The notes below the pieces were generated by a model. It saw only the letters and a list, made by a program, of their open reading frames with translations, was not told the DNA's origin and searched no databases. DNA of 64,000 nucleotides, taken from Gemmatimonadota bacterium. GTDB lineage: Bacteria > Gemmatimonadota > Gemmatimonadetes > Gemmatimonadales > Gemmatimonadaceae. Each line of letters starts with the position of its first letter. The first letter of the stretch is position 1. The DNA lies in the NCBI GenBank assembly GCA_026387935.1, contig JAPLKU010000018.1, forward strand, positions 1 to 64,000, read 5' to 3'. Positions 24,908 to 31,234 of the stretch are shown piece by piece. A program made the position numbers and the translations under genes.

Positions 24908-24964
24908 CGTTCGGCACGCGGGCTGCGGCACTACTGGGCACCGTGATGGAGACCTGCATTGCGT

Positions 24965-24994
24965 TACATGTAGTTTTTCTCCATACTACATGTA
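24965..24994. promoter_or_regulatory. Inverted-repeat operator over the vapB start
   Basis: TACATGTAGT (24965-24974) and ACTACATGTA (24985-24994) are perfect 10-base inverted arms with a 10-base spacer. Each arm holds the palindrome TACATGTA, and the two palindromes are 22 bases apart, about two helical turns. The right arm ends on the A of the vapB ATG. This is the layout expected for two dimers of a ribbon-helix-helix antitoxin repressing its own operon. Confidence 0.75.
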
Positions 24995-25299
24995 TGTCGA
25001 AGCGCCCACCTAAACCCTCGCGTCCCAGCGCCGTCCGCGAGCCGGTGCAGGTGTACCTCGCCCCGGAAGACAGCGCGCTGCTCGCGCGCCTGGCCCTGGA
25101 ATCTGGCCTCGCCAAAGCCGAGATCATCCGGCGCAGCGTGCGCAGCTACGGACGCACCCATCAGCGTGAAAGCCCCATGATGCAGTTCATGAAGGAATCC
25201 CTTACGGCGAAGTGGTCCGGCCCGCCGATCACCGATATCGATGCTGAGCTGGCCGAGGCGTACATGGACACGCACCAGAAGCCAGCCCGCCGCAAGTGA
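24994..25299 (+). CDS. VapB-like ribbon-helix-helix antitoxin
   Basis: A 101-residue protein with a basic N-terminus and a ribbon-helix-helix-like core: EPVQVYLAPEDSALLARLALESG, then LAKAEIIRRSVRSY. The C-terminal half (PMMQFMKESL, DIDAELAEAYMDTH) would wrap the toxin. It directly precedes a PIN-domain toxin with a 4-base overlap, which makes the antitoxin role likely. The ATG at 24994 is preferred over 24943 because homology begins here and the operator overlaps it. Confidence 0.85.
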   Translation: MSKRPPKPSRPSAVREPVQVYLAPEDSALLARLALESGLAKAEIIRRSVRSYGRTHQRESPMMQFMKESLTAKWSGPPITDIDAELAEAYMDTHQKPARRK

Positions 25300-25709
25300 A
25301 CGCCGCTTTCCTCGATACCGCTGGCTGGATTGCGGCGATCAAGCCCGATCAGGCGTACCATCGCGAGTCGCAGGCTGCGTACCAGAACTGGATCTCCGGC
25401 GGCGTCCCGATGGTCACAACCAACCTCGTCATGGCCGAGATGCAGACCATGCTCATGCGAAGGCGCGGCAGCGTTACTGCACTGCAATTCCTCGACCAGG
25501 TGTACGCCGACCCCAATCATGAAGTCGTGTTCGTCGATCGCGACATCGAACGCGCCGCCATCGACCGGTGGCTTCGCAAATTCGCCGAGCACGACATCAG
25601 CCTCACCGACGCCGTGAGCTTCGAAGTCATGCGCACGCGCCGCATTAGCAATGTCCTCACGCTCAACGTGCACTTCACCACGGCAGGCTTCACCGCTATC
25701 CCGGCATGA
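25296..25709 (+). CDS. VapC-like PIN-domain ribonuclease toxin
   Basis: A 137-residue PIN domain. The acidic metal-binding residues are seen as Asp in AAFLDTAGWIA (about residue 7), Glu in VMAEMQT (about 48), and Asp in ISLTDAVSFEVM (about 104), with DRDIERAAIDRW before it. VapC toxins cut tRNA or rRNA when released from VapB. The start is GTG overlapping the vapB stop. Its own stop overlaps the start of an aminotransferase gene by four bases, which is unusual for a self-contained toxin-antitoxin pair. Confidence 0.88.
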   Translation: MNAAFLDTAGWIAAIKPDQAYHRESQAAYQNWISGGVPMVTTNLVMAEMQTMLMRRRGSVTALQFLDQVYADPNHEVVFVDRDIERAAIDRWLRKFAEHDISLTDAVSFEVMRTRRISNVLTLNVHFTTAGFTAIPA

Positions 25710-28269: not shown

Positions 28270-28318
28270 GCCCGGTCGACGATGGGCTCCGCGCTAGCGC
28301 CGAGACCCTTCACCGCGG

Positions 28319-28531
28319 CTACGTAGCTGCGAGGATCACCTTGAGCGCATCGAACCGAGCAGCCCAGGCGTCTTTCACCTGCGCAGCCGCTTCCTTGCTC
28401 GGCAGCCTCAATTCCTCAACAGCCACTGAACTCTTTCCCGCGCCCTTCGCCACGGAAGCAGAGATGCCGATGATCGCGAGCGCGACAGTGGCAATCGCAG
28501 TGACGAAAATCTTCGTCCGGCCAGCCTTCAT
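28319..28531 (-). CDS. Small membrane-anchored hypothetical protein
   Basis: A 70-residue frame. It has a basic start (KAGRTK), one membrane or uncleaved signal helix (IFVTAIATVALAIIGISASV), and a short outside part predicted helical (PSKEAAAQVKDAWAARFDALKVILAA). A TTG five codons earlier is also possible. It lies 40 bases after a 17-codon micro-ORF on the same strand, and both may belong to one transcript. No family is recognised; the pattern of a regular membrane helix plus an amphipathic helix favours a real gene. Confidence 0.5.
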   Translation of the reverse strand: MKAGRTKIFVTAIATVALAIIGISASVAKGAGKSSVAVEELRLPSKEAAAQVKDAWAARFDALKVILAAT

Positions 28532-28571
28532 ACCTGAGTCAATCAAGAGTTGAAGAGCCCCCGACTTCGGC

Positions 28572-28625
28572 TTACCAAATCAGCGTATCCCTCAGCGCCG
28601 AAAGGATGGCTTCAATAAATGCCAT
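28572..28625 (-). CDS. 17-residue micro-ORF with near-ideal ribosome site
   Basis: ATG at 28625 is preceded by AAAGGGAGGTGA, an almost complete match to the 16S rRNA tail, ending six bases from the start. The frame encodes MAFIEAILSALRDTLIW and stops at TAA (28572-28574). The peptide would form an amphipathic, largely hydrophobic helix ending in Trp. It is too short for usual gene finders. It could be a leader peptide controlling the next gene, or a membrane-active micropeptide. The ribosome site is the best in its neighbourhood; there is no homology evidence. Confidence 0.45.
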   Translation of the reverse strand: MAFIEAILSALRDTLIW

Positions 28626-28792
28626 AATGCGTCACCTCCCTTTGACAAAAAGTCGCACGCATCATCCGCCACGTGCGCTACAAAGTTCGGCTCAGCTCTG
28701 GTGCCTTGGTCTTGCCCGCTCGGCTCTTCTCTGCCGGAGTCGGGGGTCTTATCTCCTCCAATCAATCCTGCGTTTCGCGCGCCCCCCCCTGA
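28626..28792 (-). other. Structured untranslated leader before the micro-ORF
   Basis: No coding frame is visible. On the minus strand the DNA can form a hairpin CGCACG/CGTGCG near 28645-28670 and a weaker CTTT/AAAG pairing right at the ribosome site of the micro-ORF. Related GAGCCGA segments are repeated further upstream. I could not match it to a known riboswitch. It could be the 5' leader of the micro-ORF/small-protein pair, or the 3' end of the preceding gene's transcript. Confidence 0.35.
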
Positions 28793-29524
28793 CTACCCGT
28801 TCGGCATCACCGCGCCGCGCCCAGCTTCTATCCATCGGTTGGTGGCATCCAGTACCGCGAGCACACCAGCTGTTTCTAGACTGTCTCGCACCGAGCAGCT
28901 GCCCGTAAGCAGCGCACCCTGCCGGCCCTGGCGCACCGTCACGCCTGCCAAAACCACCTCACAATCAAACGCCTGCACGACCTTCACGCCCTCGAGCAAA
29001 AACTGACGGCCCGTCTTGTCGCTCAGCGCCACAGCGCTCAGTGCGGCCTTCGCCGCCAACTCCACACGGCCACGATCGCCTTCCATTCCCTCCGCTTCGC
29101 CCACGAACTGCTCCTCACCCCGGCGCAACGTCACCCGGCAGAGCATGCCCTTCGTGCGGCTTCCGCGAACTTCCACATCTTCGAAGTACAACGAACGGCC
29201 GAGCTTTGCTGCCCGCGCGATGGACTTCTCTTCTATAGGCGCTTCGGCCGGTGCCGGCTTTCTTACCGTAGCCGCCACTGAAATCTTCCGGTGGTCCACC
29301 CGCATGCTGAGATGCGCCATCAGCGCGCTCTCCACATTCCGCACCACCTGCTTGGGCGTCAACTCGCCCGTCACCAGCACATGAATGGCATCAACGCCGC
29401 CACTCTCGTCCGCCACGATCTTCGCGCTGACTACGCTCGCCAACGTCCCCAACAGCTCTTCGGCCTTCACCAACGGGAGCAGCTGACCTGCAATCAGCCC
29501 CGGATTATTTTGGTGGGAAGTCAC
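28793..29524 (-). CDS. Conserved-looking protein of unknown function, two-part
   Basis: A 243-residue soluble protein. The N-terminal half holds a sequence I have seen in other phyla without a function: AKIVADESGGVDAIHVLVTG, then PKQVVRNVESALMAH, then MRVDHRKISVA (about residues 34-85). After a Pro/Ala/Glu linker, a C-terminal domain of alternating strands follows (YFEDVEVRGSRTKGMLCRVTLRRG, ... LEGVKVVQAFDCEVVLAGVTVR). No signal or membrane segment is visible. The GTG at 29524 is preferred for its GAGGAG ribosome site, which sits in a hairpin. It lies 150 bases after the sigma-54 activator on the same strand. Confidence 0.65.
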   Translation of the reverse strand: MTSHQNNPGLIAGQLLPLVKAEELLGTLASVVSAKIVADESGGVDAIHVLVTGELTPKQVVRNVESALMAHLSMRVDHRKISVAATVRKPAPAEAPIEEKSIARAAKLGRSLYFEDVEVRGSRTKGMLCRVTLRRGEEQFVGEAEGMEGDRGRVELAAKAALSAVALSDKTGRQFLLEGVKVVQAFDCEVVLAGVTVRQGRQGALLTGSCSVRDSLETAGVLAVLDATNRWIEAGRGAVMPNG

Positions 29525-29526
29525 GA

Positions 29527-29542
29527 CGAGAGGCTCCTCTCG
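29527..29542 (-). promoter_or_regulatory. Hairpin masking the ribosome site of the unknown gene at 29524
   Basis: CGAGAGG (29527-29533) and CCTCTCG (29536-29542) are perfectly complementary. In the minus-strand transcript the second arm contains GAGAGGAG, the Shine-Dalgarno of the GTG at 29524. Folding would hide it. This suggests translation control, though the stem is short. Confidence 0.45.
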
Positions 29543-29674
29543 GTTCCTGTATGGGCAAACGCTAAAATTGAAGTGTCGAATAACTCTACAGTCGTAGCTT
29601 GGTTGTGACACCACATATTCTGCAGCTCCAAACCGCATAACGACTAAGCGTTCAGAAACATTGTCTGGTAGGAC

Positions 29675-31234
29675 TTACTCTTCGGCGCCGATCGGAATTC
29701 CGTACTCCTTCAGCTTCCGGTACAAGGTGCGTTCGCCGATGTCCAAGAGATCTGCGGCTTTACGACGATTATTCCGCGTTTCACGCAACGCCGCTTCAAT
29801 AGATGCGCGCTCAATCTGGGCCATCGTCATTCCCGGGGTCACCGTTACCACGTTGCCGGAGACCGCCGGACCGGGGGGTTCGAGACCACCCACGAGCCGG
29901 CCAACGCCGAGGGAGCCGGCCGAGCCGCCTGCATTCACACCCAGACTAACCTGACTCAAAAGGTCACGGTCGTCGTCCACTTTGCGGCGCAGCTCTTCCA
30001 CCTGAAGCTTGAGTTCCACGAGCGACCGCACAATGAACTCCAACTCGCGGCCGCCAGCCCGTTCCCCTTCGCGCAACACGGGCCCGATATGCACGGGCAG
30101 CATGCGCTGCGGCCCCTGGTCGCGAATGGCCTGAGGAATGTCGTCGAGTCCAATCGCGCGCCCGTGGCTGAGCACCACCATGCTCTCCACAAGATTGCGC
30201 AGCTCGCGCACATTGCCCGGCCAGGAGTATTCCACCAGCGCCTGCATCGCATCTGGCGTAATGCCGCGGAACTCGCGCCCGTGCTGCTGGCTGAACTCCT
30301 GCACGAAGCGCCGCACGAGCAGCACGATGTCTTCGCGCCGCTCGCGGAGCGGCGGCAGGTACATGGCCAGCACGTTAAGCCGGTAGTACAAATCGCTGCG
30401 GAAGTGCCCGCGCTCGACGCCTTCTTTCAGCGGACGGTTCGTCGCCGCAATCACGCGCACATCCACGGGAATCGCCTGCGACCCACCCACGCGCGTCACT
30501 TCGCGCTCTTCGAGCACGCGGAGCAGCTTCACCTGCGTGCTCTGCGGCACATCGCCAATCTCATCGAGAAAAATCGTGCCACCATGTGCGAGCTCGAAGC
30601 GCCCGATGCGCCGCTCCGCAGCGCCGGTGAACGATCCCTTCTCATGACCGAAGAGTTCGCTCTCCAACAGAGTTTCCGGCAGCGCGCCCACGTTCACGGC
30701 AATGAACGGCTTGGCCCTGCGAGGGCTCAGTTGATGAATCGCGCGCGCGACAAGTTCCTTGCCCGTGCCGCTCTCGCCCTCGATGAGCACCGTGCTCGTG
30801 ACCGGCGCGATCTGCTCGATTTTCACGAGCACTTCGCGCACGGGCTCGCTCTCGCCGTACAGGCCGGTGCGCTCCGCCATCGTGCGGCGGTCGAGCAGCG
30901 CCATCACGCGAGTGAACACTTCCTCAGTGGTGACCGGCTTGGTGAGCACTTCGCTGAAGCCGCTCGCGCGCAGCCGGTGCTCCACGTCGCGATCACCAAC
31001 GTCGGCAAGACCAACAACCGCCGCGCCATCCCACAACTGCTGCCGCACGAGCGATTGCGTCGGCGGATCGAGCAAATTTCCCGTCACCACGATCACGTCG
31101 GGCTTCTCGCGCTTCACCGCACTCGGCAGGTCGTCGAGCGGCGACGCCATGGCCGTTTTGATGCCGGCCCCCTCGAGGGCGGCGTTGAGCCGAACGGCGG
31201 GCTCGACGTCGGTGAGGGTAATAAGAACTTTCAC
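29675..31234 (-). CDS. Sigma-54-dependent activator with degenerate receiver domain
   Basis: A 519-residue NtrC-type activator. Residues 1-115 are receiver-like, but the phospho-acceptor place reads PDVIVVTGN, with no Asp at the strand end, while the late Lys-Pro (LTKPV) is kept. The AAA+ domain has Walker A GESGTGKE, Walker B GGTIFLDEIGD, and the sigma-54 contact loop reads GSFTGA rather than GAFTGA. The C-terminus has a Fis-type helix-turn-helix (NNRRKAADLLDIGERTLYRKLKEYG). Activation therefore probably does not depend on phosphorylation of the usual Asp. Its targets are unknown; I could not find a clear -24/-12 promoter next to it. Start is GTG. Confidence 0.9.
   Translation of the reverse strand: MKVLITLTDVEPAVRLNAALEGAGIKTAMASPLDDLPSAVKREKPDVIVVTGNLLDPPTQSLVRQQLWDGAAVVGLADVGDRDVEHRLRASGFSEVLTKPVTTEEVFTRVMALLDRRTMAERTGLYGESEPVREVLVKIEQIAPVTSTVLIEGESGTGKELVARAIHQLSPRRAKPFIAVNVGALPETLLESELFGHEKGSFTGAAERRIGRFELAHGGTIFLDEIGDVPQSTQVKLLRVLEEREVTRVGGSQAIPVDVRVIAATNRPLKEGVERGHFRSDLYYRLNVLAMYLPPLRERREDIVLLVRRFVQEFSQQHGREFRGITPDAMQALVEYSWPGNVRELRNLVESMVVLSHGRAIGLDDIPQAIRDQGPQRMLPVHIGPVLREGERAGGRELEFIVRSLVELKLQVEELRRKVDDDRDLLSQVSLGVNAGGSAGSLGVGRLVGGLEPPGPAVSGNVVTVTPGMTMAQIERASIEAALRETRNNRRKAADLLDIGERTLYRKLKEYGIPIGAEE

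What the first reader, a model, noticed from the sequence alone, without database searches (positions are those of the whole stretch)
28572..28625. 17-residue micro-ORF with almost ideal Shine-Dalgarno
AAAGGGAGGTGA at six bases from an ATG is a much better ribosome site than those of the neighbouring genes, yet it serves only 17 codons (MAFIEAILSALRDTLIW). The product would be an amphipathic hydrophobic helix. It precedes a 70-residue membrane-anchored protein. Such a pair could be a leader-controlled gene or an undescribed micropeptide system.
Basis: partly seen in the sequence, partly recalled or inferred. Interest (0 to 1): 0.6.

Follow-up and report, generated by a model that had tools for sequence, protein, structure and literature searches.

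The report
Conserved micropeptide inside structured RNA
The tiny gene is real: across much of the bacterial phylum Gemmatimonadota the same folded RNA carries a 14-39 residue, oily peptide ending in tryptophan, just ahead of a membrane enzyme of the cyclic-di-GMP signalling family, which points to an undescribed peptide- or RNA-controlled signalling unit.

Summary
The micro-ORF is real, on the minus strand (ATG 28625, stop 28572). It belongs to a family found in 122 of 395 searched Gemmatimonadota genomes. In 104 distinct copies the frame is under coding constraint (pN/pS 0.40, against 0.99 and 1.47 out of frame), the peptide is hydrophobic, and 98 of 101 distinct peptides carry Trp within the last three residues. 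The micro-ORF is enclosed by an unreported RNA domain: a closing helix P1 of about 14 predicted pairs joins sequence ~110 nt upstream of the Shine-Dalgarno to sequence just after the stop and covaries strongly, and hairpin P4 covaries. No Rfam family matches. The operon is conserved: NtrC-type regulator, a protein without Pfam match ("UP"), RNA plus micro-ORF, then a MASE9-HD-GYP protein in 63 of 67 testable loci. In this window that last gene is lost; the "70-residue membrane protein" is a deletion scar fusing its start to the tail of an AHSA1-like protein. Most likely mechanism (inferred): the peptide is a functional hydrophobic product of the HD-GYP pathway, and P1 couples HD-GYP translation to micro-ORF translation. 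A purely cis-acting leader is the main rival.

The parts
28553..28750 (-). Structured RNA domain enclosing the micro-ORF, closed by helix P1
   Evidence: Conserved block in relatives; covariance model R1 on its first 121 positions finds it in 122/395 phylum genomes; P1 and P4 covary; no Rfam match
28733..28750 (-). P1 5' strand (AAGACCCCCGACTCCGGC)
   Evidence: Duplex with the 3' strand -31.4 kcal/mol in the window; across loci cognate pairs -28.4 against permuted -20.1, sd 0.39, n=105
28553..28571 (-). P1 3' strand (GCCGAAGTCGGGGGCTCTT), directly after the micro-ORF stop and before the former HD-GYP start
   Evidence: overlaps the ribosome-loading region of the next gene
28671..28677 (-). P4 hairpin, 5' arm (CGCACGT)
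   Evidence: 93% of cells paired in 72 distinct sequences, 6 of 7 pairs with changes on both sides
28654..28660 (-). P4 hairpin, 3' arm (GCGTGCG)
28632..28639 (-). Near-invariant Shine-Dalgarno GGAGGTGA of the micro-ORF
   Evidence: Median anti-SD duplex -16.2 kcal/mol across 63 loci, against -6.3 for the following gene
28572..28625 (-). Micro-ORF, MAFIEAILSALRDTLIW
   Evidence: Coding constraint pN/pS 0.40; Trp near the C-terminus in 98/101 distinct homologous peptides
28319..28531 (-). 70-aa chimeric ORF: residues 1-25 resemble the N-terminus of the lost MASE9-HD-GYP, residues 26-70 the C-terminus of an AHSA1-like protein; deletion scar
   Evidence: 47-50% identity of residues 26-68 to the C-terminal ends of larger proteins, E 5e-7; N-terminus similar to HD-GYP starts, weak
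28793..29638 (-). UP: 281-aa family without Pfam or NCBIfam match, next to the RNA in nearly all loci; predicted C-terminal domain resembles the LeuA/citramalate synthase regulatory domain
29675..31234 (-). NtrC-family sigma-54-dependent regulator, first gene of the conserved operon
   Evidence: Pfam Sigma54_activat, HTH_8; homologue directly upstream of UP in 77/80 named loci

Best explanation
The micro-ORF makes a functional hydrophobic micropeptide, in large amount because of its near-perfect ribosome site. It is part of an operon encoding an NtrC-type regulator, the UP protein and a membrane-bound MASE9-HD-GYP protein (a predicted c-di-GMP phosphodiesterase). The peptide, or a short C-terminal fragment of it ([D/G]-x-x-x-W-x), acts at or across the membrane as a ligand or partner in that pathway. 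The RNA domain around it sets expression: helix P1 holds the start region of the HD-GYP gene closed, and a ribosome finishing the micro-ORF right at P1 opens it, so HD-GYP is translated in step with the peptide. Shown: coding selection, hydrophobicity, the Trp signature, P1 and P4, operon order. Inferred: peptide function, its target, translational coupling.
For: Coding constraint in frame only, hydrophobicity in frame only (GRAVY 0.97 against about 0), Trp near the end in 98/101 distinct peptides. Signal-like profile: hydrophobic from W-14 to W-6, G/A/S at W-5 in 75%, D/E at W-4 in 57% or Gly in 28%. A cis-acting ORF that is only a landing site for ribosomes would not need these residues. SD near invariant and strong; HD-GYP start a median 34 nt after the micro-ORF stop with a weak SD inside or next to P1. 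P1 is the dominant predicted element, about 14 pairs, and covaries. MASE9-HD-GYP follows in 63 of 67 loci with room downstream. In L059 the micro-ORF frame and HD-GYP are both broken.
Against: No expression data. In this window HD-GYP is gone, yet RNA and micro-ORF look intact, so HD-GYP may not be the only target, or the loss is recent. No receptor or exporter was identified. The gap between stop and P1 varies (0 to 26 nt), and in a few loci (L064, L069, L074, L087, L100) the assigned HD-GYP start lies 87-160 nt downstream, so the coupling step cannot be the same everywhere. C-terminal conservation would also fit a nascent-chain sensor.
Confidence: 0.45

Rival explanations
1. Purely cis-acting leader. 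The peptide has no life of its own; translating it, or stalling at its C-terminal Trp/stop codon in response to a metabolite (TnaC/SpeFL style), opens or closes P1 and so switches HD-GYP translation.
For: The micro-ORF always sits inside the RNA; conservation is strongest at the C-terminus, near the stop; P1 begins right after the stop in most loci; HD-GYP lacks a good SD.
Against: The whole N-terminal part is kept hydrophobic while its exact residues drift, which stalling does not require. P1 starts 15-26 nt past the stop in some loci (L049, L051, L084, L085), beyond a stalled ribosome's usual footprint. RNA and ORF persist here without HD-GYP.
Confidence: 0.3
2. Secreted pheromone precursor like ComS/SHP: a hydrophobic leader is cut off and the last 5-7 residues (D-x-x-x-W-x) signal between cells to MASE9-HD-GYP or UP. 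A special form of the best explanation.
For: Same size and layout as S. mutans ComS, 17 residues whose C-terminal 7 (GLDWWSL) are the signal XIP (PMC6211226): hydrophobic stretch, small residue, acidic residue, Trp near the end.
Against: No RRNPP-type receptor among the operon proteins; no processing or export shown; Gemmatimonadota are diderm.
Confidence: 0.15
3. Type I toxin-like membrane peptide under RNA control.
For: Very short hydrophobic peptide inside an mRNA whose 5' and 3' parts pair over a long distance.
Against: Usually one copy per genome in one fixed operon across a class; coding constraint reaches the polar C-terminus. Antisense RNA not looked for.
Confidence: 0.05
4. Classical amino-acid attenuator (trpL/ilvB type).
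For: A Trp codon near the end in nearly all copies; many Leu/Val/Ile codons; UP has a LeuA-regulatory-like fold.
Against: A single Trp, no codon runs; no constant U-run after P1; the downstream gene is not biosynthetic.
Confidence: 0.05

Closest known systems
ComS/XIP and SHP short hydrophobic pheromone precursors (streptococci)
   Same: 14-30 residue hydrophobic precursor with an acidic residue and Trp close to the C-terminus
   Different: No RRNPP receptor in the operon; embedded in a covarying RNA domain; linked to an HD-GYP protein; different phylum and envelope
uORF/leader-peptide regulated mRNAs (e.g. ilvB-II motif in Corynebacterium, PMC10272879; trpL)
   Same: Conserved short ORF with start and stop inside a conserved RNA motif upstream of a gene
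   Different: No runs of the regulated codon, not a biosynthetic gene; peptide hydrophobicity selected over the whole length; closing helix surrounds the ORF rather than forming a terminator
Type I toxin mRNAs with hydrophobic micropeptides (Ibs, AapA, Hok; from general knowledge)
   Same: Small hydrophobic peptide, long-range 5'-3' pairing of the mRNA
   Different: Single copy, fixed operon, vertical inheritance, no antisense RNA known
MASE9-HD-GYP proteins
   Same: Downstream protein has MASE9 (PF20972) and HD_5 (PF13487) and the HHExxDGxGYP signature
   Different: I know of no micropeptide or structured leader described for them; the literature search found none

Membership tests
Protein-coding gene (micro-ORF) | Reading frame under purifying selection | tested here: met
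   pN/pS 0.40 in frame, 0.99 and 1.47 off frame, 136 pairs; substitutions by codon position 672/378/1029
Known RNA family (Rfam 15) | Match to a curated covariance model | tested here: not met
   No match up to E=1 in ten loci; in the window region the only match was a chance hit far below its cut-off
Structured cis-regulatory RNA | Covarying helices | tested here: met
   P2 and P4 together: 0 of 500 shuffles reach the observed covariation; P1: cognate -28.4 against permuted -20.1, sd 0.39
Amino-acid attenuator leader peptide | Run of codons for the regulated amino acid | tested here: not met
   Only one Trp position is constant; no runs
Amino-acid attenuator leader peptide | Intrinsic terminator with U-run before the structural gene | tested here: not met
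   P1 is followed by a variable pyrimidine-rich stretch, with a U-run only in a few loci
ComS/SHP pheromone | Short hydrophobic precursor with Trp-containing C-terminus | tested here: met
   compared with ComS/XIP in PMC6211226
ComS/SHP pheromone | Adjacent Rgg/ComR-type (RRNPP) receptor | tested here: not met
   Operon proteins are NtrC-type, UP and MASE9-HD-GYP
ComS/SHP pheromone | Processed extracellular peptide that signals | not testable with these tools
   Needs mass spectrometry and synthetic peptide
Type I toxin-antitoxin | Antisense RNA antitoxin | not tested
   No transcriptome available here
Type I toxin-antitoxin | Toxicity on expression | not testable with these tools
   Needs an expression experiment in a laboratory strain
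MASE9-HD-GYP (downstream gene in relatives) | MASE9 and HD-GYP domains | tested here: met
   HD_5 E 1e-31 and MASE9 E 5e-9 in L005, both over the curated cut-off
MASE9-HD-GYP (the 70-aa ORF of the window) | HD-GYP domain present | tested here: not met
   No Pfam match; only about 25 N-terminal residues resemble it
LeuA/citramalate synthase regulatory domain (UP C-terminus) | Same fold | tested here: inconclusive
   VIA-align Z 9.5-10.1, rmsd 3.4-3.5 over 120 residues; no sequence-profile match

The most novel reading that the evidence does not exclude
A diderm phylum uses a ribosomally made, Trp-tipped micropeptide as a direct signal to a membrane c-di-GMP phosphodiesterase, with the peptide gene embedded in a dedicated RNA domain that ties enzyme synthesis to peptide synthesis: a new kind of peptide-to-second-messenger signalling.
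Probability: 0.2. Interest if true: 0.9.

Novelty: new variant of a known kind. Interest (0 to 1): 0.72.

Why it matters
It is a class-wide, vertically inherited RNA plus micropeptide unit that gene finders miss because the ORF is 14-39 codons, in a common soil and freshwater phylum with very little molecular biology. It links three fields (structured RNA, micropeptides, c-di-GMP) and offers concrete tests. If the peptide acts in trans, it would be a peptide input to c-di-GMP signalling of a kind I know of no precedent for; if it acts in cis, it is a new leader class.

Tried and rejected
(1) A third helix P3 (CAAGG/CUUUG around GAGCGGAGCC), proposed by eye from ten sequences, was rejected: cognate and permuted pairings have equal energy (-6.08 and -6.08). 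(2) Sigma-54 promoter directly upstream of the RNA: no excess over shuffles, so the element is probably read from the operon mRNA. (3) Rfam: nothing. (4) P1 as an intrinsic terminator: no constant U-run. (5) The 70-aa protein as partner of the peptide: rejected as a deletion chimera. (6) A full-length MASE9-HD-GYP gene elsewhere in the genome: none found; only one other HD_5 protein. (7) An apparent tandem copy in L179 runs through an assembly gap of N and is ignored. (8) L092 matched the RNA model weakly but has no SD, UP or HD-GYP and is taken as a chance match. (9) An RNA-model control search in another phylum could not be run.

Full report
Observation. The micro-ORF lies on the minus strand of the window: GGAGGTGA at 28639-28632, ATG at 28625-28623, 17 codons (MAFIEAILSALRDTLIW), stop at 28574-28572. 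A GGAGGTGA 4-7 bases before an ATG occurs only four times in the 2.8 Mb genome, against two for the reversed pattern.

Comparison with relatives. A DNA search with the whole region in 60 relatives hit only the stretch 28759-28547, that is the ~110-nt leader, the micro-ORF and the bases just after its stop; the 70-aa ORF was not conserved. A covariance model (R1) of the leader, built from ten loci, then found the element in 99 of 201 genomes of the order and 122 of 395 genomes of the phylum, including other families of the class outside the order, usually once per genome. Named relatives of the neighbouring UP gene are Gemmatimonadota apart from two odd or unassigned bins.

The ORF is a gene. 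From 73 + 56 model matches I took a start codon shortly after the SD. In 104 distinct copies, 136 comparable pairs give pN/pS 0.40 in frame against 0.99 and 1.47 in the other frames; frame-0 peptides are hydrophobic (GRAVY 0.97, others about 0); 98 of 101 distinct peptides have Trp at -1, -2 or -3. Neither property was used to pick the ORFs. Lengths run from 14 to 39 residues, most often 23. Aligned on the Trp, the peptides are hydrophobic from W-14 to W-6, have G/A/S at W-5 (75%), D/E (57%) or Gly (28%) at W-4, often Thr at W-3, and mostly one residue after Trp. The most distant copies, outside the order (L182-L187), keep the layout, e.g. MLWAFALALLAGKLDW and MWLLSLLFGGTLKW.

The RNA domain. 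Helix P1 pairs ACCCCCGACTCCGGC-like sequence at the 5' end with sequence starting 0-26 nt after the micro-ORF stop. Cognate strands pair at -28.4 kcal/mol on average, permuted strands at -20.1 (sd 0.39, 400 permutations, n=105; first seen). Hairpin P4 has 6 of 7 pairs with changes on both sides and 93% of cells paired; for P2 and P4 together no shuffle reaches the covariation score. The three-pair helix P2 is weaker and overlaps the inner end of P1, so the two may be alternatives. A short motif AGCGR (mostly GAGCGGAGC) occurs 3.4 times per RNA against 0.74 in shuffles; it may be a protein-binding site (inference). Single-sequence folding also predicts P1 (median 14.5 expected pairs). No Rfam family matches.

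The operon. UP is directly upstream of the RNA in 71 of 73 loci, and MASE9-HD-GYP directly downstream in 63 of 67 loci with enough sequence (domains). An NtrC-family regulator precedes UP in 77 of 80 named loci. Of 25 genomes searched with the UP profile, mostly ones without an RNA hit, 16 had no UP match, so RNA and UP tend to be lost together. UP has no Pfam or NCBIfam match; its predicted C-terminal domain resembles the regulatory domain of LeuA and citramalate synthase (Z 9.5-10.1), a fold lead only.

The window's special state. Here the HD-GYP gene is missing. The 70-aa ORF starts like HD-GYP (GRTKIFVTAIATVALA; weak similarity) and continues as the last ~45 residues of an AHSA1-like protein (47-50% identity): a deletion apparently joined the two. 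The RNA, SD, frame and P1 are nevertheless intact. In L059, by contrast, the micro-ORF frame is shifted and the HD-GYP frame ends after about 40 codons, which looks like joint decay.

Mechanism. The micro-ORF has a near-optimal SD (median -16.2 kcal/mol) while the HD-GYP start, a median 34 nt after the micro-ORF stop, has a weak one (-6.3) in or next to P1. This suggests that a ribosome finishing the micro-ORF opens P1 and lets HD-GYP be translated. Because the amino-acid character of the peptide is selected over its whole length, I favour a functional peptide on top of this coupling: a membrane ligand or a pheromone-like signal of the HD-GYP pathway. The layout resembles ComS/XIP (PMC6211226), but this is analogy, not membership: there is no RRNPP receptor in the operon. 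A purely cis-acting leader remains the main rival. No expression data were available, so peptide production, target and coupling are inferences.

Novelty. I found no description of the RNA, the peptide or UP in Rfam, Pfam, NCBIfam or the open-access literature searched; most subscription journals are not covered. Short ORFs in structured leaders and short hydrophobic signal peptides are known kinds, so I call this a new variant of a known kind.

Noticed in passing
window 28289-28314: A ~25-nt sequence (GAAGGGTCTCGGCGCTA[G/T]CGCGGGTG-like) just after the 70-aa ORF recurs about ten times in the genome, often followed by CGGA...CCGGA sequence; possibly a dispersed repeat or another RNA element.
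   Followed up: partly
window 28793-29638: UP protein: no Pfam/NCBIfam family; predicted N-terminal ring-building/ACT-like domain plus a LeuA-regulatory-like domain; proteins matching only its C-terminal domain exist elsewhere (G071, G037, G083).
   Followed up: partly
L059: A sequence that looks like a transposase on the other strand lies ~40 codons into the HD-GYP gene, next to a frameshifted micro-ORF; recognised by eye only.
   Followed up: partly
L174: A record labelled Chthoniobacterales carries the element and gives the same match values (46%, 9e-63) as the Gemmatimonadaceae locus L175; probably a mis-binned contig.
   Followed up: no
window 25296-25709 and 24943-25299: A ribbon-helix-helix-like small protein followed by a PIN-like protein (VapBC-type arrangement), judged by eye from the translations.
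   Followed up: no
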